64,000 nt of DNA from Microglena sp. YARC. Its lineage: Eukaryota > Chlorophyta > Chlorophyceae > Chlamydomonadales > Chlamydomonadaceae. The notes under the pieces were generated by a model. The model was not told where the DNA came from. It saw only the letters and a list, made by a program, of their open reading frames with translations, and made no database searches. A program made the position numbers and the translations under genes. The number at the start of each line of letters is the position of its first letter. Positions within the stretch are counted from its first letter, which is position 1. Of this stretch, positions 1-63,321 are shown in pieces. The DNA lies in assembly GCA_022414725.1 (NCBI GenBank), contig CM039462.1, positions 4,732,125 to 4,796,124 of the forward strand, written 5' to 3'.

Positions 1-2524
1 AAGAAGAGATACCTGACGGATGGGACCCAGGGAACTACAGATGAGAGAGCAGCAGCAGCTCCAGCATTAGGGGAACCCTTCAAATTTGGTGAAGCCTTGA
101 AGTTCAGCCGCCCCGTGCCTGATTACTTGTCAGGTCCCCAATGGCATGTGCTATCCTACCTGGACCCAGCCAGCTTGTGGGATCCAATATATGCATCCTC
201 TCATGCATCAACACAGGTGCAACCAAGAACAGCAAGGGCCAAGGTTGTGAAATATGGTAGGGGAGACCCTTGGGAGGAGCAGCACCCCCCCATCCCTCCT
301 CCTGCACAAGTGACAATCAGCAAAGCCGGGCAGCAGGGTGTGTCTGGTGTCCGTACAAGGGAGCTGGCTGGAGTTGCAGTACGGGAGTACGCAACCATCA
401 ACCCCTCATCAGGAACTTGGACAGGTTACCCCGACAGCTACACCTTGCATGAGCGTCTTGGGACAGCTGAGGCAAGGAAAAGGGATCCAGATGCGACTGC
501 AGCTGCTCTAACAAGATTGAGGGCCCACGCCCATGTTGGGGGACCGTGGGAGTACGACGGGGGCCGAAGGACAGCTATGGCTGACACTGTGGCTCTCCGT
601 GACCAGCAAGCCACCATGACAAGGAGTGGTCCTGCATTTACCATGGGACAGAGGACCAAGGCACTACTACCGGGCCAGTCCCTGCTGCCCCCCCAAGCTA
701 CCGAGGTCCCTGGGCCAGGTAGGGGGAAGCTGGTCAGCACTTAGGTGGTCAGCACTTAGGGGAAGCTGGTCAACAGTTAGCTGGTCAGCACTTAGCTGGT
801 CAGCACTTGGGTTTCGGTGGTTAACGGGTCAGCACTTAAGGGAAGCTGGTGAACAGTTAGCTGGTCAGAACTTGGGGTTCGGTGGTTTAGGTTTTCGGTG
901 GTTAGCTGGTCAGCACTTAGCTGGTCAGCACTTAGGAGAATCTGGTCAACAGATAGCTGGTCAGCACTTGGGTTTCGGTGGTTTAGGTTTCGGTGGCTTG
1001 GGGTTGGTGCAGCTGACACTACCCCAGTCTCGACAAACTCAGCCTGGCCAGCACTTAACTGGTCAGTACTTAGCCGGTCAGCACTTAGCTGGTCAACACT
1101 TAGCTGGTCAGCACTTAACTGGTCAGTACTTAGCCGGTCAGCACTTAGCTGGTCAACACTTAACTGGTCAGCACTTAACTGGTCAGTATTTTGCTGGTCA
1201 GCACTTAGCTGGTCAGCACTTAGCTGGTCAGCACTTAGCCGGTCAGCACTTAGCTGGTCAGCACTTAACTGGTCAGCACTTGACTGGTCAGTACTTAACT
1301 AGTCAGCACTTAGCTGGTCAGTATTTTGCTGGTCAGCACTTAGCTGGTCAGCACTTAGCTGGTCAGCACTTAGCTGGTCAGCACTTAGCCGGTCAGCACT
1401 TAGCTGGTCAACACTTAACTGGTCAGCACTTAACTGGTCAGTACTTAGCCGGTCAGCATTTAGCTGGTCAACACTTAGCTGGTCAGCACTTAACTAGTCA
1501 GCACTTAACTGGTCAGTATTTTGCTGGTCAGCACTTAGCTGGTCAGCACTTAACTAGTCAGCACTTAACTGGTCAGTATTTTGCTGGTCAGCACTTAGCT
1601 GGTCAGCACTTAACTAGTCTGCACTTCACTGGTCAGTATTTTGCTGGTCAGCACTTAGCTGGTTAGCACTTAGCCGGTCAGCACTTAGCTGGTCAACACT
1701 TAGCTGGTCAGCACTTAGCTGGTCAACACTTAGCTGGTTAAAACTTAGCTGGTCGGCACTTAGCTGGTCAGCACTTAGCTTGTCAGCACTAAGCTGGTCA
1801 GCACTTCTTTTCCTAAACCACCCGAACCACCTAAACCTAAACCACCTAAACCCTAAGTTACCAAAACCTAAACCACCTAAACCCAAGTGCTGACCAGCTT
1901 CCTCCTCCCCCTGTACCAGGGCACTACCAGCCTGGGCCTAGTAACAATGCCTCCGGTCCTGCATTCACAATCGGGGGGCGGCCTCGTAATGTGGACCAGT
2001 CTCAGAGGAAGGACAACCCAGGACCAGGTAACAGAATTTGTGTGTATCACTGTTAGGTGTGTGTGAATCACTGTTTTTGTGTGTGTATAACTATTTTTTT
2101 GGTGTGTATCACTGTTTTGTGCGGGTTTAATGTGTCGCAAATTGAGCAACTCGGTGCGACCCCAGTACAACGGGCTGCCCCCTTAACCCCGTGGAGCGCA
2201 AAGCGCGGAGTTTAGGGGGGCAACCCCGCGGAGCGCAAAGCGAGTGGTTTGTGGGGCATTTATGACAAGCTTAGATAGGGGTCATCTCAGTCTTAGTCGG
2301 CTATCCGTGATTTCTTATACTTGTGCCTGGTTAAACGAGATGTAAATTCTCTCTCTAAGAACACTCGAGAGACCCTTCCTGAGCACCACTATTGTAATCG
2401 CTACTCCATATGCTGTCTCCAGGTGCTTCTGGTGCCCACACCCACACACGCACACCCACATCCATACCCACACCCACACCCATACCCCCCCCCCCCCCCC
2501 CGGTACACCCATACGCACACCCAC

Positions 2525-2603
<79 letters not shown>

Positions 2604-4069
2604 TTATGGTGCTCCTGGTCCCCCAGCCATTGGAGCGTCTGGCCCCTCATACACAATGCCCCCCCCCTTACCATCACCGCCCCCCCCCCACCCACCTACC
2701 CACCCACCAACGCCCCCACTCACCCATGCAGGTGCTTATGGTGCTCCTGGTCCCCCAGCCATTGGAGCGTCTGGCCCCTCATACACAATGCGAACACGGC
2801 CATATGAGTGTGCTGAGGATCTACCAGGACCTGGGGAATATGACACATATCGCAACACTAACTCTGGTAAACATGGCTGTTGTTTTGTATCTGGATATTG
2901 TAGCAGCTTCTATGCCCTATGAGTATGCTGAGGATCTACCAGGACCAGGCGAATATGACACATAGTTTTGTTTTGGATGGATATTGTAGCAGCTTCTATG
3001 CCCTATGAGTATGCTGAGGATCTACCTGGACCAGGGCAGTATGACGCATATCGCAACACTAACTATGCTAAGCATGGCTGTTGTTTTGTATCTGGCTATA
3101 GTAGCAGCATCTAGGCCGTATGAGTATGCTGAGGATCTACCAGGACCAGGCGAATAGGACACATAGTTTTGTTTTGTTTTTGTACGTGTTTTGTTGTTTT
3201 GTGTGTGTTTTGTTGTTTTGTGTATGTGTTTTGTGTATATGTTTTGTGTATGTGTTTTGTGCATGTGTTTTGTGTATGTGTTTTGTATTATTACTTGTCT
3301 ACGTGTTTTGTTATTTAGTTTATGTGTTTGTTGTTTTGCGCATGTGTTTTGTTGTTTTATGTATGTGTTTTGTATTATTATTTGTGCATGTGTTTTGTTG
3401 GTTTGTGTATGTGTTTTGCATTATTATTTGTCTTTGTGTATGTGTTTTGTCGTTTTGTTTATGTGTTTGTAACACTAATACACAACTGGCACAACGCTAG
3501 CACAACACTAATACAACACAACACAACACTAACACAACACTAGCACAACATTAACACAACACTAACGCTACACAGCACTAACACAACACTAACACAACAC
3601 TAGCACAACACTAACACAACACAACACTAACACAACGCGACACAACACTAACACAACACTAACGCAACGCTAACACAGGACCTGTCACTATATTGGGATC
3701 CAGGCCAGCACCGGTCGCCATCGATCCTACCCCTGGGCAACACTAGCACACCACAACTCTAACACAACACTAACACAACACTAACACAGGACCAGCCACT
3801 ACATTGGGATCCAGGCCAGCACCGGTTGTTGTCGATCCCACCCCTGGACCTGGAGATTACCAGGGTCATGAACAGCCTGGCAGGGACATGCCCGCGTTCA
3901 CCATGTATGAAAGGTAAGGTGGAGTTAGTCTCTCTAACCAACTAACTAACTAACTAACCAACTAACTAACTAACTAACTAACCAACCAACTAACTAACTA
4001 ACTAACTAACTTTCTGGCATGGACATGCCCGCATTCACCATGTATGAAAGGTAAGGTGGGGGTAGTCTC

Positions 4070-4120
<51 letters not shown>

Positions 4121-4178
4121 TTCTGGCAGGGACATGCCCGCGTTCACCATGTATGAAAGGTAAGGTGGGGGTAGTCTC

Positions 4179-4215
<37 letters not shown>

Positions 4216-4216
4216 G

Positions 4217-4249
<33 letters not shown>

Positions 4250-7200
4250 TTCTGGCAGGGGCATGCCCGCGTTCACCATGTATGAAAGGTAAGGTGGGGG
4301 TAGTCTCACTAACTAACTAACTAACTAACAAACTGACTTACTGGCAGTCTTAACTTGGTATCACTAACGAACGAACGAACGAACGAACGAACTAACGTAG
4401 TAACGTACTAACGTACTAACGTACTGGCAGGGACATGCCCACGTTTACCATGTATAAAAGGTACGGATCCTGTGTGCCCCATCAGAAATTATCATTACAC
4501 TGTCATAGACAGGCCATTGTTCGCCCAAGACGAGCCCGCTCCACAACATCCGGGAGGGCTCTTCCAACAAATCTTTAGAAAATGAAAAGCAATATTGCAG
4601 CAAGCAGTAGCATGCCCCCCAGCCACCCTCCCATCCTTAAACCTCCCTAACTCCTAAACCTCTTAAACCTCTTTAAACCCTAAACCCTCCTATCCTCCCA
4701 CCCTCCGACCCATGCCGCACTCCCACCCTACACACCCATGCCACACGCCCACCTTACATGGCCATGCCAAATTCCCCAGGTAGCACAAACTCAGGCCCTG
4801 AGGGCCCCCCTTGGTATAACAATTGTTTAGGGTTCAGTTCACCAATGATTTTCTTTAAATATGATACGGTAGGTAGGATACCCTATTTGTCCATACAGAC
4901 AAGATATTAGGTCAAACGGCAGTACACCATTAGATTTTGTGAAATGTGAAAAAAGCAATAACACAGTCAAAACAATAAAAACAGTTTCATTCAAAATGGA
5001 ATCACTCCCCCTGAACCCCCTTTCACATCCCCCAGGATTCAACCCAAACAAGACAAAGATGCCCCTGCACCAGGGGAGTATGACATCCCATGTGAGCTGG
5101 GTCGCTCAGGTGCAGCATGGACCATGCGTGGTAGAGCACAGGTGGGCAGTTCTTGCAGATGACATTGTAAATTGGTTATTTAATACAAATTAATGTATTT
5201 TAAACATTCAGTTTTCATAAAATTTGCATGGAGCATGTGTGGTATAACACATTTTTGTTTATTGATTTTTAAAATTTTAATGTACAAGACAAGGATGCCC
5301 CTGCACCAGGGGAGTACGACATCCCATGCGAGCTGGGCCGCTCATATGCATCATGGAGCATGCGTGGTAGAGCACAGGTGGGCACTTTTTGAATTTGAAT
5401 TTGAATTTGAACTGTTACATGCTTTTTCAGCCAACTCTTTCAAGTTGTGCGAAGTCAGCTGGGTCGCTCTGGTGCAGCATGGACCATGCATGGTAGAGCA
5501 CAGATGGGCAGTTCTTGCAAATTTCTTTGTCAAGTGGTTATGTAAAGCAAATTAATGCGTTTTAAACAACCTGAATTAATGTGCTTTAAACAACCTGAAT
5601 TAATGTGTTTTAAACAACCTGAATTAATGTGTTTTAAACAACCTGAATTATTGCGTTTTAAACAACCTGAATTAATGTGCTTTAAACAACCTGAATTAAT
5701 GTGCTTTAAACAACCTGAATTCAGGTGCTTTAAACAACCTAAATTCATGCGTTTTAAACAACCTGAATTAATGTGCTTTAAACAACCTGAATTAATGTGC
5801 TTTAAACAACCTGAATTCATGCGTTTTAAACAACCTGAATTCATGTTTTTTTATCATTCCGGTTTGGCAAAATTGGCAAGGAGCATGCGTGGTAGAGCAC
5901 ATTTTTGTTTATTGCTTTTTAAATTGTTTTGAGTACGAGACAAGCATGCCACTACCGCATGGGGAGTATGGCCTACCATGCAAGCTGGGTCGCTCATTTG
6001 CAGCACGGAGCATGTGTGTTAGAGCACAATTGGGCACTTTTTGAATTTGAATTTGAATTGTTACACGCTTTTTAACCCCACTCTGGGCTCCTCACTGTCT
6101 TCCAATGCCAAGCCCTCCCGTGCGACCCGTAACTATCACAAAAATAAGGGAGCAGATTAGACAGTTTAAAGACTTGTTCAGATTCACTGTTTTTTGTATT
6201 ATGCGACGTGTCGCCATTCCGTTGCTGCATGGCGACGCATAGGTCCGGTTAAACTAGTCAGAAACACCCCCTGTAACCCCCGGGCTCCGCGGGGTTCGGG
6301 GGGGCAGAGCGTCGCACTGGGGTTGCATCGAGTCGCTCAATTTGCGACGCGTCGAATGAAAAAAACATTGTCCCTGGACATGTACTTAAACTGTCTACTC
6401 CGCTTAGTTTGCTCCCTGGTTTCCATGGGTATCGCACGGGGGGACTTGGCACTGGAAGACGGTGAGAAGCCCAGAGTTGGCTGATAAACATGTAACAATT
6501 CAAATTTAAATTCGAATTCGAAAAGTGCCCCAAAAGCATCTTTAGAGACGCACTAACTCATCTGATCCTTTCCTGTCCATCTGCTTGCAGAAACCTTCGC
6601 CCCCCAATTTCCCTAGACCTGGCCAGTGTTGCCCTGTCGACATCCTCGGAACTGAAGGCTGACAGATCGTTATCCTTTCCTGTCCGTCCGGTTGCCATGG
6701 GGGTGCTAATTAACACAAATTAACATGAACACATTAATTTAAATTAACACAATTCATGTGTAATTTACATTAACACATGAATTTAAATTTACTCCAATAC
6801 ATTAATTTAAATTAACACCACTGCATTAATTTAATTTAACATTAACATTAACACATTAAACTTAACATTGACACACATATTTACACAAATTGGCAGCTAC
6901 TAACTAACACTGGCAGCTGTTAGGTTGTTCGGCGTTTAGTTGTTGAGGGGTTCTCTCTTGCCTATTTAAATAGGCATAGGCAGTGCCTTTGCCTTTCCTA
7001 GTCCATCTGCTTGCAGGAACCTTCGCCCCCCGATTTCCATGGACCAGGCCAGTATTGCCCTGTCGACATCCATGAAAGGGAAGGCTGCTAGACCATGCAA
7101 TCAATACAATGAAAAAAACCCAAGCCTGCCTAAATTATGATATTTCTACATGTCCCTCCCCCTTCAGGAAACCTTTGCCCCCAGATTTCCCTGGACCAGG

Positions 7201-10200
7201 CTAGTATTACCCTGTCGACATCCATTCAAGTGAAGGCTGATAGACCAATACAACGAAAGCCCCTAAGCCTGCCTACGATTTGATATTTCTTCATGTCCCT
7301 CCTCCCTCAGGAAACCTGTGCCCCAGGATTTCCCTGGACTAAAACAGTGTTGCCCTGTCATCATCCTTGAAAGTGAAGGCTGATAGACCAATACAACAAA
7401 ACCTCCTAAGCCTGCCTAAGCTATGATATTTCTTCATGTCCCTCCCCCTTCAGGAGGCCAAGCCAATACAATGAAACCTCCTAAGCCTGCCTAAGCTATG
7501 ATATTTCTTCATGTCCCTCTCCCTTCAGGAGGCCAAGCCAATACAACAAAACCTCCTAAGCCTGCCTAAGCTATGATATTTCTTCATGTCCCTCCCCCTT
7601 CAGGAGGCCAAGCCAATACAATGAAACCTCCTAAGCCTGCCTAAGCTATGATATTTCTTCATGTCCCTCCCCCTTCAGGAGGCCAAGCCAATACAATGAA
7701 ACCTCCTAAGCCTGCCTAAGCTATGATATTTCTTCATGTCCCTCCCCCTTCAGGAGGCCAAGCCAATCGATTTCCCTGGACCAGGCCTGTATAGCCCTGT
7801 CAACATCCTTGGAAGTGTAGGCTGATAGACCAATACAACAAAACCCCCTAAGCCTGCCTAAGTTTTGATATTTCTTCATGTCCCTCCCCTTTCAGGAAGC
7901 CAAGCCAATTGATTTCCCTGGACCAGGCCTGTATAAGCCTGTCGACATCCATGAAAGGGAAGGCTGATAGACCATGCAATCAATACACCGAAACCCCCCA
8001 AGCCTGCCTAAGTTATGAAACATTCTTCATGTCCCTCTGCCTTCAGGAAACCTTTGCCCCCTGATTTCCCTGGACCAGGCCAGTACTGCCCTGTCAATAT
8101 CCTTGAAAGTGTAGGATGATAATCCAATACAAGCAAAAAACCCAAGCCTGTCTAAGTTATGATATTTCTTCATGTCCCTCCCCCTTAGGAGGCCAAGCCA
8201 CCCAATTCCCCTGGACCTGGCCAGAACTGCCCTGCCAATATATTTGACCAGTTTACACTTCACACCGATGCACTACCTCATACTATTCCATCTGTCCCTG
8301 TAACCAATCCCTCCACCCTAACCCCCTCCCCCCGCCAGGAAGCCGAGCCACCCCTTTCCCCTGGACCTGGCCAGAACTGCCCTGCCGATATATTTGACCA
8401 GGTTACACTTCACACCGATGCACTACCTCATACTATTCCATCTGTCCCAGTAACTACCTCCTCCCCCCCCACCCCCCTCCAGGAAGCCGAGCCACCCGAT
8501 TCCCCTGGACCTGGCCAGTACTGCCCTGCCGACATCCTTGAGACTGAAGGAGGACCTGCACACACCTTTGGCTCTCGGCCTGGGGAAAAGGAAGAGTCAT
8601 GGTCCCCAGGGCCAGCAGACTACTACAAGTGGGTTGTCATACACTTTTCCCATTTTTCATGCACTTTTCCCATTTTTATATAGTTTCCCATTGGGTACTA
8701 CAAGTGGCTTTCATAGACTTCACCCATTTTCCGTATATTTTCCTTTAGGTACTGCAAGTGGGTTTTCATATACTTTTCCTATTGTTTCTTCTATCCCTTT
8801 CCCTTCTTTGATTTATTTTCGCTTTTTAAGTTCAATGTTTGTCCGCTGCGTAGTATACACCTTTCAGGGATTTTATTTTCAGTTCAGAAAGTGGTTTTTA
8901 TAGCTGTATGGGTTTAGACCTCCTCCAGGGGCAGCGTTCTTTATATATGCAGGGCATGCAGATTACTGCAAGTTTTGTTTTGCTAATTTTCATGCATTTC
9001 TGTTTCTCTGTTTTCACCTTGTCTGGTCCCTGCATACGCCTCTTGACCTGGGAACAAGAAGAAGGAGGCATATGAGTAGGGATCGGCAATTTGATATCAC
9101 ATGATATCATGTCATCATATGAATATATGATATCATGTCATCATATGATATCATGTCATCATATGATATCATGTCATCATATGATTTCATATGATGCCGG
9201 CGGTCTGACTAGGTAATTTTGGCCTGGGGCACCATATCATATGATATTACATCATATGATTTTTGTATGACATCATATGATATCATACTCGTCTTTGGTC
9301 AACATCATATGATTTGCCGTTCCCTACATATGCGTATATGACCCCCAGTGCATGCAGATTACTGCTAGTAAGTATCCCCCCATACCTACACCCACACCCC
9401 CTAAACCCACACCCACCCCTAACCCTACCCACATCTACACCCACGTCCACACCACTAAACCCACACCCACCCCTACCCCTACCCACCCCTACACCCACAC
9501 CCACACCACTAAACCCACACCCACACCACTAAACCCACACCCACACCTACACCCATGCAGGCCTGTGTCAACTTCAGGACCATCCTACACCATCAATGCT
9601 CTTCCCTCTCTTCTGCTACACCCACATCCATACCTACACCCTACCCCTACCTACATCTCCCCCCTCCCCCCCCCCCCCCCCCCCCACACACACATAAATA
9701 CCTACCCCCTACCCCCACCTACATCTACACCCTTACCCTAACTCTAACTACACCCACACCCACACCTACACCCATGCAGGCCTGTGTCAACTTCAGGACC
9801 AGCCTACACCATCAATGCCCGCAATCAGCCAGACGATCCGCGTCTCAAAGAGGCTGCTGCTCTACCCGGCCCTGGTCAGTATGACTATGCTGAGCGTGCT
9901 GATGCACCAGCCTACACCTTTGGGGGCAAGGGTACTGCAGAGGACGCACGCCCAGACAGTCCCGGGCCCGCAGCGTACGATATCGTGGCCAATGAGTCGG
10001 GCCCAGCGTTCACAATCGCAAGCAAGCCACTCCACATTGAGCCGACCGGGTCCCCCGGACCTGCCGAATACGACCTGGACCGTGGAGTTGGCTCCGGTCC
10101 CGCATTCACTATTGCAGCTAGGCACCAAGGGCGCGAGCCCAAGGCTGATCTCCCAGCACCAGGGGAGTACATGCTGCCAAGTGACAGCTGGCGCTGTGGG

Positions 10201-21755: not shown

Positions 21756-31666
<9,911 letters not shown>

Positions 31667-31711
31667 ACACTCAGAGGTTGCACATTATTTGCATAACTAA
31701 ATTAATTACTG

Positions 31712-43521: not shown

Positions 43522-44231
43522 TCACGCCATACCTTGAACCACCTTATCTAGTTCGCTCCTTGGGAGCATAGACTGCTTCCCTCTAATGCCAACCAGTTCT
43601 TCTGCACACTCCCTCTTGCCAGTCATGATTTTCCTCAGCAATTTCACCTGGCACTTTCCATAACTAGTGTTGCCATTGAGCAGCCCCAGGCTAACCAACA
43701 CATCCGCAGCCACTGGAGGCAGTGGTGCAGATTTGTCTCTCAGGGACAAGCTCAACAGGGGAGGTGGTGTTCTCTCTCCAGACACATGGTGCTGTTGGGC
43801 ATAGCACAGCAGCATCAGCTGGGGACTCCGAGCTGTTGATGTTGATCCACTCAGCCTGGAAGCACATGCTACCTCCTGCGGTGGCAAATGGAAAGGGAAC
43901 AATAGTATTGTGTCCTTAGGATAGCTGGAAGTTTGTACTTTGCGGGTAAGCGGGTCCCTCTAGCCTATCCGGCTACCCCAAGGTCTGTTGCAAACTACCG
44001 GTTCTAAATACTACTACATCTCTTGCTCACACCTCAACATAGTGTAAACAAACTAAAAGCTATTATTGGACCCCAACGAAGTTGATGTGAGCACTACTAC
44101 TACTGCGCCCACCTGCATAGTTCCCTACCCCTGAGGAGACCAGCAAGGCCCTGGGTAACGAGAACAACTAACAGGTACAGAGTGACGTTTGGTGGGGTAG
44201 CAGGTTTGTGTGTGTGTGTGTGGTGGTGGTG

Positions 44232-44278
<47 letters not shown>

Positions 44279-48553: not shown

Positions 48554-48588
<35 letters not shown>

Positions 48589-48677
48589 ATATATAAAAAA
48601 AAAAAAAAAAATATATATATATACTAGTACGGTAGCCCTTGTGGCCGGTGGCCACACCTACTCTCACGAAGACCCCC

Positions 48678-48708
<31 letters not shown>

Positions 48709-50119: not shown

Positions 50120-50186
<67 letters not shown>

Positions 50187-53100: not shown

Positions 53101-56100
53101 ATAAAGGAAGGACATAGACCGCAAGCACAAGCAGGGATTTGGGAGCGCCTGGCGCCATGAGTGTAAGCTCGGTTATGGCGCCATGAGTGTAAGCTCGGTT
53201 ATGGTAAGGACATGAAATAAGGACATAGACAGCAACAAAAAGGAAAAACTCAGTTTCAATACCTGCCTCTCGGGGATTTGGGAGTGCCGTGAGTGTAAGC
53301 TCGGTTATGGTAAGGACCAGGTAAGGACGTAAAGTAAGGACATTGACAGAAACAAATAGGAAACACTCAGTTTCGAAACCTCTCATTTGGGAGCGCCATG
53401 AGTGTAAGCTCGGTTGTGGGAAAGTCCTACATCACATAATTGTTGCTCATGCACAAGGCTTGGATGGAACTTATGAAACATAACATTCCTAACCCACCCT
53501 TAACCTGTGATATTAAAGTGCGCCCACTCTTTTGTAGGAGTGGCAATGCCATTCAAACTGAATCCTCGGTGTTGCTGGTTTGTACGGGAGACCTACCTCC
53601 TGGGGTGAAATATCTTTCACAACTTGAAAAAAGAATTAAGCAACAGGAAACGACAAAGCTATTTCTAGTATCACAACTTCCACAATCGCACTTTGTGGCT
53701 GTCTTCAAACCAGAGAATCCAGGAAAGCTCATATGGTGGGTGTTGAATCAGGGACCTAGCCAGCTGGGAGTGCCACTCAGCTGCCACCTCCTCCAGTTTC
53801 TGGCTAGAGACAAGCCGCAGACGGCGGAATGAGCCTGGAGGCCTGCGTTTATTTGATTTCGCCTTGTTTAAGATATTTAAGATAACTGCAGTCCGCCTCT
53901 ACCAATGTAAGTGATGCTTTTTCTTTTGAAGCCCTTCCTGTCACAGTTGAACAAGTCCCTTCAGCCTATTTGGCCTACCCCTGGACTGAAACACACATAC
54001 ATACAAGTAGGGAACGGCATAGTATGTATCCCTATATATATATGAGTATGCACTTATATATAGCCCCTCCAATAGGGATAATTACCACACAACCTAATTA
54101 GTTGCCATTAGTTGACCAAATCCATATTCAGCCCATCCTGATCATTTGATGTTGATGTTGATGATGATGATGATGACCACTTTTTTTCCTGGTGCCCTAC
54201 TGGACTCCCTTGGTTTGACAGAGTCAAGGAGGACTTACAAACATCATGCAAAAAGAAGAAGAAAAAAAAAATGGAACTTATCTTGATTCGTATTTTTGAT
54301 TGGAAAACCCCCATAGCTGTATGGCTCCACCTGGACTTTCACCAACACACATACATACATACACATGCATTTCACCGGCATATCCCCCGGGTGTGCTATT
54401 CACAGGAACCCTATGTAACCCGAATAAAAGTGGGGAGGGGGACATTCGGGGAACTGGCATTTTTGCGGAATGTAGGCAAAACGCCCGATCTGTATATATC
54501 CGCATCCTACGGAAGGCGATGGGTGTGCAAAAGACCCTCACTCAGCGGCTAATCACTGACCCCGATAAACACCCAGAGCTTTTTGCCTCCATTTCTTATT
54601 TTTGCGAGTTTCCTGAGTGGGAAGGAGGGGGGAGATGCGACCCAAAAGAGGGTGCCCCGAGATGATTTGATGTGTCTGTTCCACTGCTGCGTTACACAGG
54701 GTAACTAAAGAAGAGATACAACTTGCCTATTGGCAGAAGATGTCCATACATCGAGCTTGTGCTCCGACAGAACGTTGGGCTTCGAGGAGTCGTCCATTTG
54801 TTGTGAAACCACATGTAGAAGTGACTGTATGACCTCAGCACGCTGTAGCCTAGCTGGTAGGGCTGACCGCGCCCCAACAGCATACATGAGCTGGTGCCTG
54901 GAAAGGAATGGGGAGAGGCTGGGTAAACCATAACAGTGTTTGGGCAAGCTAAACATGCTGCCTCCACTGCATTGTATGTATGTTCCAGTGCAGGTAGTAG
55001 TAGCCTACAAGACAAAAAGAACTCACCAAACCTCAACAAGTCCTATGCAGCGTTGCAAGTGACGCGGAAAATTGTCGGAGTGTGTTGGCAACGGATTGTA
55101 AGGTGGCAAAGATGGAGCTGACCAAAGCCAGTTAGTTGCAGTAGAGACAGTTGGCTGACGTGTCAGGCTTCCATTTTTTGGTCGGACCAACGTACAAATG
55201 GGTAACCCTGGGGGCTCCCGCTCCACAGAAGGGGGGGCTCCGCCAAAAAGTAAGATTTGCCCGGATTCTGCATTTCTGCATTTCTACAATTCTGCAATTC
55301 TGCATTGTGCAAGTAGTAAGCACTAGCCTTCAAGACAAAAGGAACTCACCAAACCTCATCAAAATGAGATTTGCCCGGATTCACCACACATTATCAGGTT
55401 TACTATGTACAATCGATGTACTTGTATAGTGGTATGTAACAAAAAATGAAGGTCTGAGTGACATTGGAGATAATGTTTGTTCACAGCCCTTTTATAGGGC
55501 AAAGCTAGTAAGTAATTGACCATCATGTAAGATGTTTGACACATCAAATGACAGGATGAATAGGTGATGGCATGATGTTTCATTATGTTTGAAAAAGTAA
55601 TGATAACGCTTGGTGGGGCGTGGTATTAAGGGAGCCCCGTCTTACAGCGGTAGGGAACGGGCTGCTACTTTACCTGGACAAAGCTACCATGGCGTTTGAC
55701 AGCTATCGCGAACACTAAAGCACACCCGTTTGAGGAGCTCTGCCATTTAGCCATTTGTCGAAACGGGGATATTATGTTTGAAAAGAGTAGCACCCAGGGA
55801 ACCGACCAAGTATCTTAAGTCTATTTAGATACGTATCTGCTTAGTTCAAAATATTCTCTCAGATATTTATTTCAGATATTGAACAGATAATATCTAGATG
55901 GCATCAAGATATCACACAGAGTAGAAAGCAATATGACTGATCATCTCGACAACACAGGTGCGGGGTTCGAACCCCCCTGGATGCGCCTGAGCGATCGCGG
56001 TCGCTGTCAACACACGTCCAGGTCAGGTAGCCGCCCGTACTCTACCTCCAAACGATTGGCTCCCTTAATCCCACGCGCCACCGGGCATTATTGTAACATA

Positions 56101-59100
56101 GAAAGCAAGATAACATACGTGTTAGTTAATGGCAGAGTATTGTTTGCTTCCAGTCCTGTGGAAAGTATTTGGATGGTCCCCAAGCCACAGAAAGGTTAAC
56201 AAGAGTAGTACTGCCCTATGTCACAATCTGATGCCGTGGGAGATTAACATCATGTTTCTTATTGCTGTGATCTCTTCCAACATTCCCATGTAGGACAGGT
56301 ACCTGTGGCAGGGCTTTTTTTACTGCTATATACAGCGATCGCTAGTTTTGACCGTTTTGGCAAAAACATCCCTATAAACAGAAGTAAACAAGTCCTATGC
56401 AGCGTCGCCAGCGACGCGGAAAATTGGCGGAGTGTGTTGGCAACAAAATGAAAGGTGGCAACGATGGAGCTGACCGAAGCGAGTTAGTTACGCGACCGTT
56501 GGCTGACGTGTCGGGCTTCAACTTTTTGTTTTTCGGTTGGACAAACGAACAAATGGGTAAACATGGGGGCTCACGCCCCCTTGAAGAGGGGGCTCCGCAA
56601 AAAAAAATGTTTTTTTCTTGTTTGCCCTAAATGGCCCTAAAAGGCTATAAAAGCTTTAAAAAGCTGTAAAAGCACTTAAGCGCTGTTCCTGGAGGAGGCT
56701 TAAAACCTCAAAGCTACAAAAAAAACCTTTTCAGATTTGAAAAAATAAGTGCTGACCTGTGGTGGAGCAACTCATCACTCTCGTCCAATATGTCAAAATA
56801 CGGCAGAGCTTCGAGGGCATCCAGAGCAGCGCTTAATCGTGGGTCTCTTTTTTCAAGAAGCTCAACAGCCTTGAGCTGAAGGGAAAGACGGTGCTCCCTC
56901 GCTACAATCAAAATCCCGCCAGACTGAATACAAGGAGGTGGGGGTAAGTTAGCCCCCAATTAAGTTCATGAGGTTTATGGGGTTTAGGGTTTAGGATATG
57001 ATTAAAAGGTTTAGGGGCTTAGGTTGGTTTAGGGTTTGGGTAAGTGGGGGCTAACTTGTGTGGGGGGTAACTTCCCTCCAGACTGCAAACAAGAAAGCAG
57101 AGGGAGTGGAACATGGTGTGACATGATATACACATGGTTGCACATGGTTCCACATGGTTACACATCATTACGCATGGTTACACATGGTTACACAGACTGA
57201 AAACAAGAAAGCAGAGGGAGCGGAACATGGTGTGACAGGATATACAAAAGATAAGTCGACAAGTCTGGGAAATCTGTGAGAATATACTGTGCGACAATAT
57301 CAATACCACCAGACTGATGAGAAGGAACTACAGTGGGGTGAGCTTGGTCAGACAAGGTGTTCACAAGAGAGCTCGGATCCCTTTCCCTTGGCACTTTACC
57401 GTAGTCAGACTGCTGGCATCATAGGATAGCATTTGATGACATGATATCATATGATATTTAATTGCGGCTCCCTAACCATTGTGCTCACCTTCTGGCAGTG
57501 CGAGAGGCTTGCAGTCATGGCCCTGACATTGCTAACTGTCAACTCCACATCACGGTTGAAGGGCTGGGTGAAGACCTTGCGTTCAGGACACTAGCGCAGA
57601 TGTGGTTGTGCAAGTGCGACCCAGCTTCACTCAGCAGCGTGGACAAGAAGTTCAAGCGCACCTGCATGTGTAAATGATTCCGGTGCAAACATCAGTGTAT
57701 TGGGTCCTTTGTACGTGTATTTTATCCCGTTTCGACGACTGGCTTAATGGTAGAACACCAAGAGGGTACAGTGCTCGAATCCCTACAAGTGCGCTTTAAT
57801 ATTTGCGGTCGCTGTCAACCGCCATGGTAGCTTTGTCCAGGTAAAGTATCAGCCCGTTTTCTACGCTGTAAGATGGGGCTCCCTTAATACCACACCCACC
57901 AGGCATTATCATTACTTTTGTGTGATCATTACATGTATTTGATTATTTATGTACATTACAGTCCAGGGGTAGCCAAATAGGCGACATGGGCCATTTGTAC
58001 ATGTTACAGGCTATCTATCAGTTCAGAGTAGCACAAGGAACTATTGGAAGTATTCTGTCGTGTTTGTCTGCTTTTGTTTTTAGTCCAGATGTAGGTTTAC
58101 CAGCCTTTGGGCTCTCCTTAGCCGTACAATTGTTATTCTTTATGCGGGCCAGTGGGTGGGCCAATCTCTTATAGTGTATCTGGATACCTTCAGACAAAAA
58201 TCCATCCACAAATGGTAAGTTAACAATAGTGATACAAACCCCGCAAGTCCCTGACAAAGAGTGGGCTACGACAGCAGGTGACTTACAAGATTGGCTCCCT
58301 TGGCAAGTTGTAGGCAAAGCATCGGAAGGATGACCCTTGTCTTGCCTTCTCCCATATTCATCTGGGCAATGGATCCGCGATGTTCAATCAGGTGCCTGGC
58401 CACAGCATACTGCTGCGGGCGGATCTGCAGCCCACCCTTAACCTCGAACACCAACCATTCAGGATACTCCGCCACACTCTACTGCCGCCACACTTGCAAC
58501 TCCTGCGGGAAACAAGCCGATGCAGAGTTGCTTATTCTGTTGTCCAATGCAGTGGGCAAGTCATTTCAGCCTGAGGTGTGTATCTGGCTACCTAATCCAG
58601 AATGCATCATATTAGTTACAGATCCTAGGGTAGCAATATAGGCTAAAGGAGCCCGCTAGCTCATCCACACAGAGTGAGGGAGTGAACAAATTCTGAACTA
58701 TCAGGATACATCCGCACTGCAATACATACTACCGCCATACGTACAACGATCTGGCTAAGGGTATTTGTGGAGCACAAGTAAGAATGGAGTGGCAGTGCTG
58801 ATAGTTGACTTGCCATTCAGGCATCCATTACACTTTTGGAACATCTCCTGCTTTTCAAGATTATGAACGTACACTCCTTAAGTAATGGCAACGGTTTGGC
58901 GAATGTCGAACCCTTTGCCAAAGCGGTTTTGGCTCAAACCTGACTCCAGTCTAGCTGGTTTACCGTTGCCAATTTATAACCTAATGGTTACTACTACTCG
59001 TTTTCCAGCGCACTCTGCTGCCTCACATGTGCTCCCTCGCTTGCTCGCTCCCCTCCCCTCCCCTCGCTCCCTCCCCTCGTCGTGCCTCCCCCCACCTCGC

Positions 59101-62100
59101 CTCCCATGATGAAGTAGACACAACGTATGTTAATATGGACCAGGCTCGTACATATGTCATTCCCAGGTCAACATAACTCTTGGCTCTTAGAGCTCTTGCG
59201 ATTTGTCTTGGACGTGGTCATGAAGTGCTTGCTATCCCATCCCCTCATGACATTCTATAACTGTTTTGAATTTACTTGAACTTAAACTTGGTTAAATGGC
59301 TCCAGCCAGAAATTTCCACATCTGCTCCTGATTTGAATGGTTACATGCGCAATCAACATAGGAACCGCTCTTTTACGTGGTTTTACAGCAAGCCTGGTTT
59401 TCAGGTCTCAACTCGAGTCGGTTCCAGCCATGGACTCCTTTGCTATGATATTTTCCATGCTTTATTGAGACCCCTTTCAAGGGAAATGGGACAATAAATG
59501 TTCTTGCCATTACTTAAGGCGAGTATGGTAGTTGGCTGACTCTTTAGTCTTGATCCAGAACAAGTGCATGAGCACGTCTTTACACATGAACAAGTGCATG
59601 AGCACATCTATACACATGAACAAGCAAAGGGTTGTGTAGGAGGGGAACAATCAGCATATTTGTTATGCCCCACTAGCATTTTTACAGATCTAAGACCATT
59701 ATGCAATCCTCTTTAGCAGCCACGTTGTATCCCAAAGTGAAAGTAACCACCCACATAAGTCTAACACATAAAAAAACAAGGGCTGGTATATGAGTCAGCT
59801 CGATACCTGAACAAGTTGCTGTGTTTCTCCGGCCTTGCAGAATAGTTCCATGCGCTCCAGTCTATCCTCTAGCACACACAGTTGCAGCCAGGTGAGGATG
59901 GCTTGGTGGAGGACCCGGCAGGACTGCTTGGTTAGGAATTGGTTGAAGGTGAGCAGGTGGTCAGGCGCATGCAAGGCAGCCTCCACCAGGTCCAAGAGCC
60001 CAGCAGTGGCTGTCCCATCCGCAATCCGTAGCATGCGGAAGCTTCTTCGGATTGAGCCATTGCCGTCACGGACTGACTGGAGCTCAGGGACTGCATGCAG
60101 ACCCTGAAGAAGATACTTCTCGACCTTCTTCCGGTTTTCCGTTACATCGTTCTGTGCCAAGTGAAGAGAATGGTGGATCAACAGTGTGGGGTTAAGGGTT
60201 GGACTTACATACCAATAGGGAACGGCATTATGATATCATGTCATCTTATGATATCATATGATATTTAAATGATGCCGGCAGTCTGACAAGGCTAAAGTTA
60301 CCATATATAAATGGTAATTATAAGGCTATAAGTTACCACATGTATCATATGACGCATTTTGTATGATATTATATGATATCATACTCGCCTTTGGTCAACA
60401 TCATATGATATGCCGGTCCCTATATATCAATGGATGTGACCAGAGATTTTCTTGTGGGCGGAACTTTCAAGGAATACACAATTATAAAAACTTTGAAGTG
60501 GGACATTCCTTTGCTTATTGCCCTTCCAACAATCTCTGGACTACAATATTGTACGAATGCAGCCCTAAAGCAAGATATTCATATTGTATTGTGCACTCCT
60601 GGCCACGTTATGTCTATGCATTGCATGGGAAGTATGGACCCACCTTGGAAGTGGAAATGTGCTCCCTCACAGAATGTATACTGTGGCTCAATTCGAACTC
60701 TGGGGAGGAGTGGTATGCCGTCCAGCTCGCTTTCAGCTCAGCATGCATGACCTTTGCCAAGTATGATTCCTCCCCCTGCTCCCCTCCTACTTGGAGCGGG
60801 TATTGAGGAGCTTGATGTCTTCTAGACCTTGTTTCGGTCACCACCAAGGAAAGCAGCTGCTTCTCTACTTTAACGACAATATCTGGAGGGATGCTGCAGG
60901 CTGGTACCTCAATCTGGCGCAGTTCCCCTTGCTGAATCCAGTGCGGTGGTGCCTGTTTTTTGTTTACCCTCGTGGCGGATTCCTCCTCTGCAGGTTGCAG
61001 CAACATCCTTGAGTTGTGGCACCAGCCTCCATAGTTTCCCAACTCGCTCTATTGCCGATACAGATTGGCATACTGGTGGTTGCAGAGAATGCTAGGCTGG
61101 ACACCTGTTTCAAGAGAGATGCAAACAATGGATCAAAGAACTCACCCTAGGCTTATCAAGTTTACGGGCTACGTAGGGCTGCGTACTAAGGGCTGCGTAG
61201 GGCTACACGGGGCTACGTAGGGTACGTACGACGGGCTACGTAGTTTACGGGCTACGTACGCCGACGCGCTATCTCTCCCCACTTCACCTCTTATCTAGCT
61301 CTACAATTACAGGATTTCTTTTAGTGCTAGCAAGAGCTATTAACGCTAATAGCACTTAACTCCTGCCCCCCCCCCCCTCCACCCACCCACCCACCCACCC
61401 ACCCACCCACCCACACACACAACCCTCCTAGCCCTACGGACAATAAATAAAAGAACTCACGCCAGGCTTATAAACTTTGGCACCTGCGGAACCCACAGCA
61501 CAAGCCCTCCAAATGATATTTAAATTCTGGTACGTCTTGGTGAAATGATGGTGTCCTGTTCAGTTTGATCCCAGGATTGCACATAATGCAGCAAAACTCA
61601 ACAACAGACCTGAATGCTCATGCAAGTGCTTTTGTGTGGAGATGCTCCTCTGAAGCTCAAGACACAGTAGGTGCAAGCCAGGAGCCAGGTGGCCGCCAAA
61701 CCTGGCAACACTCTCCAGATGGCTGCCTTCCTCCGCAGTCAGCGGCCGATTTGTACAGCTCCACCTAACCAGGCGCATAGCCAGCTGTGCACCGGTCATG
61801 CGAGAGCGGGGCTCTGGGAGCAGGGAGCTGGTGGCTGAGTACAAGGCAGCCAGCTGAAGCCTCGACAAGATGGAGGATGCAACAAGGTATCCAAACCTTG
61901 GATGAACCTCATAGCAGTGCACCTAAATGGGGGTGAGTGTGGTGCTTCTTGGTAGGGTAGCGAGCAGTGGGCTGTGGGTTGAAGGTGTTGTTAGGTGAGC
62001 CGTGCAGGGGGGGTGAGGGGGGGGGGATACATGTAGAGGCAACATTCTGAGATGCATGTCTTACCTAGAATCCTCAACACAGGTACGCATGTTTGTATAT

Positions 62101-63321
62101 ATGTGCGCATATGTATTATAAAGCATGGCCGGCCGATCTCAGGTTTCCAACACCATAAATTATGTCAAGCAACACCATAAGCACACCTTGATCAAGGCAT
62201 CAGTTGCTTTGCTTACTGACACGATGGGCATCGCCATCTCATCCGCCCTGTCCAAGGTCACAGGTCCATTCGGCACAATGATCATCAGATTGGATTGCTG
62301 GGCTTGAAATGTATTGCCCTCTTGATGCATGCGCTCAAGGACAAGGTACTGCTGGAAGTTGGGCAGTGTGTAGTCAACACTGCCCTCTACAACATGGTCT
62401 TCCTCGCCTGCAATCAATTGCTCGGAGGGTCAGTATACAGTATGTGTACATTACAGTCTAGTTCATTCATGTAAAGTGTTTGTAAGATACAATCCATGGA
62501 TAGGCAAAGAGCATTAGGGAGCTTTCCAACCTTGGGCAAGTATTGTTATGACATTTTCAGGATGGGCTGATTATAAACACTCAATGGACTGATCCCTGAT
62601 CAAGCTGTGTGGTTGTGTGGGTGTGCGCTTGTGTGAGTGAGTGAGTGGTTGTGGTGTTTCTGTGATCTCCATGTTCGTCCAATTGTCGCCCTGATATATC
62701 TATGCATTCTGTTAGTGTGTGTCTACGTGTTAGTGTGTGTCTATGCTAGTGTGTGTCAGTGTGTGTGTGTGTGTGTGTGGTGGTGGTGGTGGTGGGGGGG
62801 GGGGGGGTCCTGTGTGGTTGTGCGCTCAATGGACTGATCCCCAAACAAGTGGGGGTAAATTTCACCGAGAAAACCCCAATTAGTCTGCCGAGGTGATTAT
62901 ACTTCACTCATTATTCCTGCAGGTTTGTTGAGTCCTTTTCGGCCCATCTATCTACCCGCAAACTCCATTCTTCCATCAGTAAGACAGTATGCCCTACCCT
63001 CCACAGCATGTTCATCCCCACGCACCAATTCTATGGGCAAGTTGTTGCTCGTCTGCAAGCTTGAAGCCAGCATAATCTCTTGAGAGGAAGATTCCATCTT
63101 TTTGTTCGAACTCCAGGCCGTAGCGGGGCAGCTCCCACAGGAGGGACGAGGTCTCTCGAGAGTACGTGTGTATGAACTTGGGGTCCTCCAGCTTGGTCAA
63201 GATGTTCAGACCAAGGGAGGATTGTTGGGCCAAGACAAGCTGATCAGACAGCTCTGCCCTATGCTCTGACAAGAGGGATGGCCAAGGCCTTGATATCAGG
63301 TGCAGGGGGATACGCAAGATG
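43522..63321 (-). CDS. Large DUF3638/DUF3645 protein, partial, possibly damaged
   Basis: Minus-strand exons 5' to 3': 63321-63026, 62407-62187, 61922-61610, 61072-60644, 60151-59807, 58478-58287, 57661-57489, 56923-56757, 54897-54727, 53842-53692, 52746-52571, 50652-50411, (gap), 48244-48135, 47925-47752, 47478-47262, 45544-45356, 44821-44417, 43875-43522. About 1440 codons; phases agree except as noted. Family motifs: LPRYGLEFE, HPEWLVFE-like YPEWLVFE, GGLQIRP, MGEGKTRVILPML (P-loop-like), EHRLSLQLK, DILDESDE, VPYRA, GADMKL, MMQAAGRLRQL. These large proteins occur in fungi and protists; function is unknown. Some databases name them ubiquitinyl hydrolase, which the sequence does not prove. 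Two 1-nt shifts (T6 run 60956-60961; ~57576-57583) and a phase mismatch between 50411 and 48244, where the expected GFSGTND-type segment is missing, suggest a decaying gene or consensus errors. The 5' end is outside. Confidence 0.83.
44100..44416 (-). repeat. Exon-edge copies and (TG)n-G tract after exon 44821-44417
   Basis: GCGCCCACCTG, the complement of the exon's end and donor, recurs at 44105. CCCTGAGGAGACCAGCAAGG occurs at 44129 and 44308. (TG)n then ~30 G fills 44205-44290. Confidence 0.65.
45172..45253 (+). repeat. Repeat B, 3' fragment
   Basis: CCTTCTTATCACGGTTGGGC to CCCTGGACTGTAACATACAT, inside an intron of the minus-strand gene. Confidence 0.6.
45655..45770 (+). repeat. Dispersed repeat I
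   Basis: GCAGGAGTGGCACCTCCATT, GAATCCTCGGTGTCGCTCG, CCTCCTGGGGTGA. Other copies: 47135-47225 (+), 48278-48370 (-), 53520-53625 (+). Confidence 0.6.
46592..46745 (+). repeat. Dispersed repeat B with (CTAA)n tail
   Basis: GTAGCAAAAACTTAGGGCCG to CCCCTGGACTGTAACAAC, then CTAACTAACTAACTAG. Confidence 0.68.
48430..48730. repeat. (TA)n/A-run tract and poly-C/(CA)n
   Basis: Alternating (TA)n and A8-16 blocks (48440-48620), then GGCCACACCT copies with C25 and (CA)n (48672-48720). GGCCACACCT repeats again at 48763 and 48865. In minus orientation this is AGGTGTGGCC, donor-like. Confidence 0.75.
48731..50117 (-). other. Long intron of the minus-strand gene, no exon recognised
   Basis: A C-rich stretch, then 49150-50100 of mixed sequence with a duplicated ~100-bp segment (CGACATGTTTCTC near 49528 and 49669). 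The expected central family segment is not visible. 48890-48990 is open on the minus strand but matches nothing known to me. Confidence 0.4.
50118..50184. repeat. (TA)n microsatellite, ~33 units
   Basis: Uninterrupted TA repeats. Confidence 0.95.
50255..50345 (-). repeat. Copy of the end of exon 50652-50411 with its donor
   Basis: GCACACCTGGTGAGATCCTA and GGGACAGTGCTAGCCACGC match GCACACCTGCTGAGATCCTA and GGGACAGTGCCAGCCACGC at the true exon end (50405). Confidence 0.75.
51191..52317. mobile_element. hAT-like element, 1.1 kb, nested repeat inside
   Basis: TAGGGTTGGG at the left and CCCAACCCTA at the right, with perfect flanking TACATTTC on both sides. Near the ends are CGTATAAACG-type palindromes. 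Inside at 51640-51795 is an inverted repeat H. No transposase is seen. Confidence 0.82.
52345..52570 (-). repeat. Copies of the end of exon 52746-52571
   Basis: CCCACCTGTTGACGCCAAAG (true exon end, 52567) recurs at 52361. A second pair, GTCGAGTTCAGTTTCAA and GTCGAGCTCAATTTCAA, lies at 52402 and 52482. Confidence 0.65.
53915..54008 (+). repeat. Repeat B 3' part with CATA tail, abutting a family D left end
   Basis: AAGTCCCTTCAGCCTATTTG to CCCCTGGACTGAAACACACA, then TAGGGAACGGCA at 54009. No matching right end of the second element is clear. Confidence 0.5.
54721..54726 (-). promoter_or_regulatory. GC-AG 5' splice site
   Basis: Exon 54897-54727 ends AATAG and the intron begins GCAAGT on the minus strand. 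No GT gives the right phase. AG|GCAAGT fits the known GC-AG donor form, and the next exon (53842) continues the frame. Confidence 0.65.
55040..55250 (-). repeat. Dispersed repeat J
   Basis: In reverse: TTTTTGGCGGAGCCCCCCC, GGGTTACCCATTTGTACG, GCCTGACACGTCAGCCAAC, then GACAATTTTCCGCGTCAC. Confidence 0.7.
55595..55775 (-). mobile_element. tRNA-derived SINE, copy 3
   Basis: Inverted copy: AATGATAACGCTTGGTGGGG to GAGGAGCTCTGCCATTTAGC (A-box side). Confidence 0.72.
55930..56095 (+). mobile_element. tRNA-derived SINE, copy 4
   Basis: GGGGTTCGAACCCCCCTGG (B-box-like) then GCGGTCGCTGTCAACAC and GGCTCCCTTAATCCCACGC. The A-box side is diverged. Confidence 0.68.
56385..56600 (-). repeat. Dispersed repeat J
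   Basis: CAGCGTCGCCAGCGACGCGG, TTGGCGGAGTGTGTTGGC and GGGGGCTCCGC mark an inverted, almost full copy. Confidence 0.7.
56938..57075. mobile_element. Introner-like TIR element beside an exon acceptor
   Basis: GGGGGTAAGTTAGCCCCCA at the left, TGGGGGCTAACTTGTG and GGGGTAACTTCCC at the right. The core is TTTAGGGTTTAGG-rich. Both sides carry the exon/acceptor sequence (CCAGACTGAATACAAG and CCAGACTGCAAACAAG). Confidence 0.65.
57060..57320 (-). repeat. Copies of the acceptor and start of exon 56923-56757
   Basis: On the minus strand CAG|TCTGGTGGTATTGATATTGT (57297-57316) imitates the exon start CAG|TCTGGCGGGATTTTGATTGT. Shorter copies lie at 57069 and 57192 with CAAACAAGAAAGCAGAGGGA. Short CACATGGTTA repeats at 57130-57190. 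Confidence 0.7.
57725..57915 (+). mobile_element. tRNA-derived SINE, copy 5
   Basis: TGGCTTAATGGTAGAAC and GTGCTCGAATCCCTACAAG, then CTGTCAACCGCCATGGTAGC and GGCTCCCTTAATACCACACC. Ends CATTATCATTACTTT. Confidence 0.75.
60216..60422. mobile_element. hAT-like MITE, family D (palindromic core)
   Basis: TAGGGAACGGCA to TGCCGGTCCCTA; flanks CATACCAA and TATATCAA match 6 of 8. Core ATGATATCAT palindromes and CTTTGGTCAACATCATATGA are shared with 9077-9326. Confidence 0.78.
61150..61420. repeat. GGGCTACGTAGG repeats and poly-C/(CCCA)n/(CA)n
   Basis: About nine CTACGTAG-type units (61164-61260), then C12, (CCCA)n and (CA)n (61364-61422) in an intron. Confidence 0.75.
62755..62808 (+). repeat. (TG)n-(GGT)n-poly-G
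   Basis: Another TG-to-G composite tract, in an intron of the minus-strand gene. Confidence 0.85.

What the first reader, a model, noticed from the sequence alone, without database searches (positions are those of the whole stretch)
1..63321. Introns in three unrelated genes grow by tandem copying of exon edges with their splice sites
In the SHIPPO gene, the epimerase and the DUF3638 gene the intron next to many exons holds 1 to 15 copies of that exon's first or last 20-110 nt with the adjoining acceptor or donor. Acceptor-side cases: SHIPPO exons 3, 4, 6, 7, 8 and 9; epimerase exons 4 and 5; DUF exon 56923. Donor-side cases: SHIPPO exons 3, 4, 5, 9 and 10; epimerase exon 5; DUF exons 52571 and 50411. 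Ordinary minisatellites would not keep being anchored on splice junctions. This suggests a recurrent process centred on exon borders, such as local replication slippage or repair, that produces decoy splice sites.
Basis: seen in the sequence. Interest (0 to 1): 0.93.

Follow-up and report, generated by a model that had tools for sequence, protein, structure and literature searches.

The report
Tandem copying spills across exon edges
This genome, probably a green alga's, carries tandem copies of DNA in many places, and where a copied stretch spans the end of an exon the neighbouring intron holds spare copies of that exon's edge and splice site, which the cell is predicted to pass over in favour of the copy joined to the exon body.

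Summary
In three genes, 60 exon-edge copies in 18 families lie inside the adjoining introns; 55 carry the splice junction. Of 64 exon matches, 55 lie in the adjacent intron in sense, one in a non-adjacent intron, none antisense in an intron. This is tandem duplication. A process centred on exon borders is not supported: local duplications cross 14 of 68 splice junctions, against 21.0 expected for shifted junctions and 27.8 for random intronic points, and intronic duplication does not peak at borders. Tandem duplication is common elsewhere in the genome, and kinesin and chaperonin genes show the same copies. A tandem duplication that includes exon sequence and spares the protein must include a splice site, so the anchoring would follow from selection. 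Copies drift without codon bias beside a constrained exon, and divergence from the exon rises with distance. Splicing is predicted to use the exon-proximal copy; two orthologues lack the insert that two decoys would add, though one database model of the gene includes it. No RNA was available. Closest known case: one tandem duplication across an intron-exon boundary in potato.

The parts
1..17789 (+). SHIPPO (sperm-tail PG-rich repeat) gene, 12 exons: 1-718 (starts just before the window), 1920-2027, 2732-2866, 3790-3913, 5036-5141, 8483-8628, 9780-10264, 11853-12242, 12952-13318, 14823-14986, 15991-16806, 17107-17789
   Evidence: open frame through all exons to TAA; PF07004 E 2.4e-46; start upstream
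2589..2659 (+). copy of SHIPPO exon 3 first 60 nt with acceptor
   Evidence: 0 substitutions in 60, AG kept
2914..3165 (+). three donor-side copies of SHIPPO exon 3 end
   Evidence: one of the three reaches the donor, which is changed
3667..3736 (+). copy of SHIPPO exon 4 first 58 nt with acceptor
4014..4466 (+). four donor-side copies of SHIPPO exon 4 last 37 nt, GT kept in all four
   Evidence: CTGGCAG lies at 3877, 4123, 4252, 4341, 4424
5284..6039 (+). four donor-side copies of SHIPPO exon 5 end (5284, 5454, 5876, 5935)
   Evidence: of three that reach the donor two have it changed
6588..8397 (+). nine acceptor-side copies of SHIPPO exon 6 (59-73 nt of exon), AG kept in all nine; two are used as extra exons in database model P0188
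9549..9599 (+). copy of SHIPPO exon 7 first 39 nt with acceptor
10821..11751 (+). eight acceptor-side copies of SHIPPO exon 8 first 28 nt in a CCCACCCACCCTC-type array
   Evidence: TTGTCCA lies at 10799 in the intron and 11868 in the exon
12753..12920 (+). two acceptor-side copies of SHIPPO exon 9 first 61 nt, one with AG changed
13437..14175 (+). three donor-side copies of SHIPPO exon 9 end
14580..14620 (+). acceptor-side copy of SHIPPO exon 10 (not in the finding)
15125..15642 (+). two donor-side copies of SHIPPO exon 10 end
21756..31667 (+). aldose/glucose-6-phosphate epimerase gene, 7 exons: 21756-21785, 23648-23713, 24442-24615, 26826-26940, 29152-29354, 30698-30826, 31562-31667
   Evidence: PF01263 profile positions 2-297 of 299, E 5.9e-50; junctions 29354/30698 and 30826/31562 agree with P0096, which differs at both ends
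25488..25754 (+). three acceptor-side copies of epimerase exon 4
27389..29056 (+). ten acceptor-side copies of epimerase exon 5, nine reaching the acceptor
29405..29873 (+). four donor-side copies of epimerase exon 5 end, all with the same in-frame TAG
43522..63377 (-). DUF3638 gene, 18 exons modelled, with in-frame stops, a frame change and a missing conserved stretch
45774..45818 (-). acceptor-side copy of the DUF exon starting at 45544 (39 nt of exon, 10 substitutions; not in the finding); a second match at 45595-45646 covers exon interior only
   Evidence: reverse-strand 18183-18227 and 18355-18406
50256..50324 (-). donor-side copy of the DUF exon ending at 50411 (58 nt of exon)
   Evidence: reverse-strand 13677-13745
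52352..52378 (-). donor-side copy of the DUF exon ending at 52571 (15 nt of exon plus donor)
   Evidence: reverse-strand 11623-11649

Best explanation
The exon-edge copies are most likely by-products of local tandem duplication that strikes this genome without regard to exon borders: where the duplicated segment spans a border and splicing (predicted, not seen) goes on using the copy joined to the exon body, the protein is unchanged and the other copy of the exon edge, with its splice site, is left inside the intron. Shown: the copies are local, in the same orientation, mostly carry the junction, and in this window are not enriched at borders. Shown: the copies vary without codon bias while the exon is constrained, and on the whole they are more diverged the further they lie from the exon. 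Inferred: repeated rounds make arrays because the exon is a master copy that selection keeps intact, so a new duplication across the border takes a fresh copy. Inferred: duplications wholly inside exons are purged unless they keep the frame, which is why the exon part of a unit starts at a junction. Inferred: the real exon wins over the decoys because only it has both splice sites at exon distance (exon definition). The molecular cause of the duplication (slippage, unequal exchange or template switching at short direct repeats) is not resolved.
For: Exon matches: 55 of 64 in the adjacent intron in sense, 1 in a non-adjacent intron (23 nt), 0 antisense in introns. Junction carried by 55 of 60 copies. 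Border tests: 14 of 68 junctions crossed vs 21.0 and 27.8 expected; 7 of 57 vs 17.3 masked; coverage not peaked at the border. Tandem duplication elsewhere: local duplication covers 0 to 1.00 (median 0.37) of ten arbitrary 10-kb stretches, and TRF arrays of period 20 or more cover 0.018 to 1.00 of them. Same copies in kinesin genes: 9 edge-matched copies at 7 exons in 43 clusters, two loci read as sequence, and one case in a chaperonin gene. Copies neutral, exon constrained: copy-versus-exon substitutions 0.119/0.123/0.200 by codon position; variable columns among copies 49/168, 58/171, 58/168. Divergence rises with distance over 9 families with 48 copies: mean rho 0.48, 3 of 2000 permutations reach it, nearest copy 0.078 vs 0.151. 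Decoy use would usually break the protein: 7 of 55 decoy sites are in frame and stop-free. The two orthologues aligned, P0189 and P0190, match the model that uses the exon-proximal copy of exon 6. P0096 joins 29354 to 30698, skipping four decoy donors.
Against: No RNA data. The border test rests on 68 junctions in three genes, and selection against border-crossing duplications could hide a modest mutational preference for borders; in the masked data exon edges (0.42) are covered more than the last 30 nt of introns (0.30). Splice dinucleotides in the copies are changed less often than neighbouring exon positions (5 of 110 cells vs 14.1 expected, P 0.044), a weak hint that some decoys are kept. 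Database model P0188 of the SHIPPO gene uses two exon 6 decoys as exons of about 63 nt, although that model also skips exon 2 and reads exon 3 in another frame. Decoy distances are in frame in 27 of 55 cases, above one third (the sites are not independent). One family (SHIPPO exon 8, 8 copies) shows no rise of divergence with distance, rho -0.23. Short direct repeats at unit ends are clear in only 3 of 18 families.
Confidence: 0.8

Rival explanations
1. A process centred on exon borders (for example repair or stalled replication at splice junctions) keeps copying exon edges.
For: 18 of 68 junctions in three genes carry copies; some carry 8 to 10, and the nearest copy tends to be the least diverged; in masked sequence exon edges are covered more than the abutting 30 nt of intron.
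Against: No enrichment at junctions; intronic duplication does not peak at the border; many arrays lie wholly in introns or intergenic DNA. All four donor-side copies of epimerase exon 5 share one TAG, so they appear to descend from one decayed copy and not from the exon each time.
Confidence: 0.07
2. The copies are recruited as extra mini-exons or alternative splice sites, so the arrays feed new repeat units into proteins such as SHIPPO.
For: P0188 includes two exon 6 copies as in-frame exons of about 63 nt, each adding a PG-rich unit; five of eight exon 8 decoys are in frame and stop-free; splice dinucleotides are slightly better kept than neighbours.
Against: No codon-position bias among copies; 48 of 55 decoy sites lead to a stop or a frame shift; the two orthologues aligned lack the insert; P0188 contains plain errors, so it is weak evidence of use.
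Confidence: 0.15
3. The copies come from introner-like transposons whose target-site duplications repeat the exon edge.
For: An element with terminal inverted repeats is dispersed in the genome and in SHIPPO introns 1 and 11; 6 of 20 testable loci share 6 or more flanking nt.
Against: The exon parts are 15-125 nt long, almost only in the adjacent intron, in one orientation and repeated up to 10 times; the shared flanks of the element are at most 9 nt.
Confidence: 0.03
4. Assembly artefact.
For: Tandem arrays are hard to assemble, and the DUF gene has stops.
Against: Copies differ from the exon by 0-28% and from each other; similar structures occur on other contigs.
Confidence: 0.02

Closest known systems
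Tandem genomic duplication across an intron-exon boundary in the potato RdRp gene (Ma, Lan and Niu 2016, PMC4974935; abstract and Results section read)
   Same: A direct tandem duplication spans an acceptor and the start of the exon and carries the splice signals with it; the paper also mentions a second tandem duplication inside an intron.
   Different: One event that created a new intron and is backed by RNA-seq; here there are serial arrays at many junctions, on acceptor and donor sides, that enlarge existing introns, without RNA evidence.
[quoted passage not shown] known here only as described in PMC4974935)
   Same: Tandem duplication that moves splice signals.
   Different: That model starts inside an exon and makes an intron; these units include existing junctions.
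Dual-specific splice sites in tandem-repeat genes such as UBC (Duan et al. 2024, PMC10809524; abstract and passages read)
   Same: Tandem repeats whose units carry splice sites; proposed as a route for gene evolution.
   Different: There the intron length is a multiple of the unit and units are spliced variably; here the predicted splice skips the decoys.
Minisatellites (recalled)
   Same: Head-to-tail arrays growing and decaying locally.
   Different: Many units here include coding sequence and a splice site.
Introners (Gozashti et al. 2022, PMC9860276; passages read)
   Same: Bring or duplicate splice sites.
   Different: Dispersed transposon-like elements; the exon-edge copies are local.

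Membership tests
Tandem genomic duplication across an intron-exon boundary | copies in the same orientation next to the source | tested here: met
Tandem genomic duplication across an intron-exon boundary | duplicated segment includes the splice junction | tested here: met
   55 of 60 copies
Tandem genomic duplication across an intron-exon boundary | a new intron is created | tested here: inconclusive
   the predicted effect is growth of an existing intron; P0188 predicts extra introns around two decoys; no RNA
Introner | similar copies dispersed at unrelated sites | tested here: not met
   1 of 64 exon matches in a non-adjacent intron
Introner | terminal inverted repeats or target-site duplication at the copies | not tested
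   tested only for the separate hairpin element
Minisatellite / tandem repeat | head-to-tail arrays | tested here: met
[quoted passage not shown]
   AGGT sites were only listed in four donor arrays
Dual-specific splice-site repeats (UBC type) | variable splicing of units | not testable with these tools
   no RNA data

The most novel reading that the evidence does not exclude
Exons in this genome act as selected master copies that keep seeding their own introns with splice-competent edge copies; the spliceosome sorts up to ten near-identical sites by exon definition, and now and then a decoy that gains a partner site is recruited as a new in-frame mini-exon, so junction-blind tandem duplication becomes a source of new protein repeats, as predicted for two SHIPPO exon 6 copies.
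Probability: 0.25. Interest if true: 0.75.

Novelty: new variant of a known kind. Interest (0 to 1): 0.5.

Why it matters
It gives natural arrays of up to ten similar acceptors or donors next to the real site, in ordinary genes, which makes splice-site choice (first site versus exon definition) directly testable with cDNA. It also suggests a route of intron growth that leaves the protein intact, and a reason why gene prediction fails in such genomes: database model P0096 starts inside an arrayed exon, and P0188 takes decoys as exons. And it shows that apparent anchoring on splice junctions can come from selection alone.

Tried and rejected
Border-centred process: not supported in this window by two junction tests and a coverage profile. 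Coding role of the copies: codon-position test negative; two DUF families lie after the frame change, so 73 of the 3751 cells of the copy-versus-exon count have a wrong codon position. Microhomology at unit ends: an automatic scan gave mixed results; only three families show a clear short direct repeat (TTGTCCA; CTGGCAG; GTGGTNGATGA with one mismatch), so no repair pathway is claimed. A genome search with the SHIPPO family gave 0 matches, also in the 14 control genomes, and says nothing. Ab initio exon finding in the fetched stretches: the codon signal was too weak to add genes. A viral-contig scan for a repeat of the window found nothing. Papers: 10 searches were sent, 9 answered. Those for tandem copying across exon borders listed only the potato case and the UBC paper as relevant by title and abstract; one search found nothing. 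Searches were for introners and for Cymbomonas. I therefore say only that these searches show no report of serial exon-edge arrays.

Full report
What was checked. The window is 64 kb of a 568,105,699-base genome in 2390 contigs (G000:C1:4732125-4796124). The best named relatives of its epimerase and SHIPPO proteins are green algae: Chlamydomonas euryale 57% for the epimerase and Chlamydomonas eustigma 41% for SHIPPO. The SHIPPO gene reads openly through 12 exons to a stop, and the epimerase through 7 exons with a nearly full-length PF01263 match. The DUF3638 gene was modelled with 18 exons from database relatives, 65-86% identical in local alignment (P0001, P0002, P0006, P0017, P0037). The fragment of it given to one search matched no Pfam family; the label rests on the relatives' PF12340 and PF12359 (names recalled). 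It carries in-frame TAG codons at 61051 and 58481 and a stop near 44824, a frame change in the exon 57661-57489, and lacks a conserved stretch of about 114 residues between exons 50652-50411 and 48244-48135, so it may be decayed.

The observation. Exons were compared with the whole window (64 matches other than self): 35 lie in the upstream adjacent intron and 20 in the downstream adjacent intron, all in sense. Of the other 9, four are exon-exon matches within SHIPPO, three lie in intergenic DNA (two of them copies of the last SHIPPO exon just after its stop), one is a 23-nt match in an intron of another gene, and one is antisense within its own exon. Local alignment then gave 60 copies in 18 families at score 44 or more, 55 of which include the splice dinucleotide (one search lists 64 at a lower threshold).

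Is it centred on borders? Local same-strand duplication (offset 20-4000, 30 nt or longer) covers 0.60 of SHIPPO introns, 0.66 of epimerase introns, 0.14 of DUF introns and 0.20 of intergenic DNA. Around borders of SHIPPO and the epimerase, coverage is 0.67-0.75 at 300-1000 nt into the intron, 0.53-0.56 at 50-300 nt, 0.50-0.52 within 50 nt, 0.43 in the first 50 nt of the exon, 0.29 at 50-100 nt and zero beyond 100 nt. In the DUF gene it is 0.03-0.05 at the border, 0.17-0.26 at 100-300 nt and 0.20 falling to 0.08 further in. Duplications cross 14 of 68 junctions (SHIPPO 10 of 22, epimerase 3 of 12, DUF 1 of 34). The expectation is 21.0 (sd 3.0) when the junction set is shifted around each gene, and 27.8 at random intronic points; SHIPPO alone is at expectation (10 against 10.7). 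With low-complexity sequence masked it is 7 of 57 against 17.3; in that masked profile the first 60 nt of SHIPPO and epimerase exons are at 0.42, the last 30 nt of introns at 0.30 and deeper intron at 0.35-0.62. So the arrays run through borders no more often, and rather less often, than elsewhere. One limit: selection against border-crossing duplications could hide a mild preference.

Why it looks anchored. This step is inference. A tandem duplication wholly inside an exon alters the protein and is purged unless it keeps the frame; one wholly inside an intron leaves an intronic array; one across a border leaves the mRNA intact if splicing uses the copy joined to the exon body. Surviving exon sequence in the intron should therefore start at a junction, as in 55 of 60 copies.

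The genome. Ten arbitrary 10-kb stretches (L041-L050) have local duplication coverage of 1.00, 0.23, 0.74, 0.29, 0.33, 0, 0.29, 0.97, 0.40 and 0.72, and TRF coverage by arrays of period 20 or more from 0.018 to 1.00. A search with the kinesin family gave 128 exon matches. Among 113 of them, in 43 clusters, 17 close pairs share profile positions. Nine are copies at 7 exons whose upstream copies share the exon's first profile position (within 1) or whose downstream copies share its last (within 6). One is a near-whole exon pair, two are copy-copy pairs and five I read as neighbouring exons with blurred ends. Two of these loci were read as sequence and show the arrays. The chaperonin family (64 matches) shows one such case, C5:39357802 with 39358262, read by eye. 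Short copies escape such profile matches. The two sequenced loci were chosen because they show copies, so they extend the observation but do not test the border question.

How the copies behave. Copies differ from their exon at 0.119, 0.123 and 0.200 of codon positions 1, 2 and 3, whereas variable columns among copies are even: 49 of 168, 58 of 171 and 58 of 168. I read this as neutral copies beside a constrained exon. Splice dinucleotides are changed in 5 of 110 cells against 14.1 expected (P 0.044), a weak excess of retention. In the 9 families with three or more copies (48 copies), divergence rises with distance from the exon: mean rho 0.48, 3 of 2000 permutations reach it, nearest copy 0.078 against 0.151 for the rest. 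The exon 8 family shows no such trend. All four donor-side copies of epimerase exon 5 share one in-frame TAG, so that array appears to have grown from a decayed copy.

Which site is used. Of 55 decoy sites, 27 would keep the length in frame and 7 would be in frame without a stop. The database holds P0096, whose matching part is identical to this epimerase over half the query and whose junctions 29354/30698 and 30826/31562 agree with my model, skipping four decoy donors; it begins inside the arrayed exon 5 and leaves my last exon near 31651 for sequence at 33349. It also holds P0188, listed without a source, as proteins that the window itself encodes are; it takes two exon 6 copies as exons (about 63 nt each, limits inferred) but also skips exon 2 and reads exon 3 in another frame. 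The two orthologues I aligned, P0189 (Chlamydomonas eustigma) and P0190 (Sanguina aurantia), of 147 proteins found, have no insert there. Exon-proximal splicing is thus the better prediction for the ancestral protein; use of the decoys in this species is open.

Known work. The nearest case I found is a single tandem duplication across an intron-exon boundary in potato, with RNA evidence and a new intron (PMC4974935). Splice sites inside tandem repeats have been proposed to drive repeat-gene evolution in human UBC-like genes (PMC10809524, abstract and passages). Introners (PMC9860276, passages) differ by being dispersed. Two papers on the alga Cymbomonas were read in passages (PMC10675990; PMC5741210) while I was guessing at the host, and bear only loosely on this.

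Verdict. Real, and present beyond the window, but best explained by junction-blind tandem duplication plus selection; a new variant of a known kind, with a testable splicing question attached.

Noticed in passing
window 16993-17096 and 718-1909; loci L001-L030: A hairpin element with a 26-nt perfect inverted repeat around a CCCTAAA-like core is dispersed in the genome (94 matches, a lower bound: 40 of 664 candidates scored), in places in tandem. SHIPPO intron 1 begins with one arm and has the inverted arm near its end. Of 20 loci (of 30) with both arms found, 6 share 6 or more flanking nt (3.3% in shuffled pairs; some loci overlap), and at L011 the shared TGCAGGTG holds AG/GT at what look like the splice sites. 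It looks like an introner family.
   Followed up: partly
window 10248-10303 and 10410-10465: SHIPPO intron 7 holds a 56-nt inverted repeat (89%) of the end of exon 7 plus the intron start, around a CCCTAAA-like core. The DUF intron at 56946-57057 has a similar 17-nt arrangement.
   Followed up: no
window 17864-18171: Two diverged copies of the last SHIPPO exon's coding end lie just after its stop codon, so the tandem copying is not limited to splice junctions.
   Followed up: no
window 43522-63377, - strand: The DUF3638 gene has in-frame stops, a frame change and a missing conserved stretch relative to database proteins 65-86% identical in local alignment; possibly a decayed member of a multi-copy gene.
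   Followed up: partly
window 54727, - strand: The DUF exon ending at 54727 appears to use a GC donor.
   Followed up: no
window 37427-39348, + strand: Open frames that read like a Copia-type reverse transcriptase and RNase H; the label is recalled, no family search was run.
   Followed up: no
window, nine places including 31074-31095 and 53952-53973: A dispersed 22-nt motif (CAAGTCCCTTYAGCCTATTTGG, up to 3 mismatches) occurs nine times against 0.01 expected.
   Followed up: no
L033:5725-6189: An open frame resembling a patatin-like lipase about 24 kb upstream of the window; label recalled.
   Followed up: no
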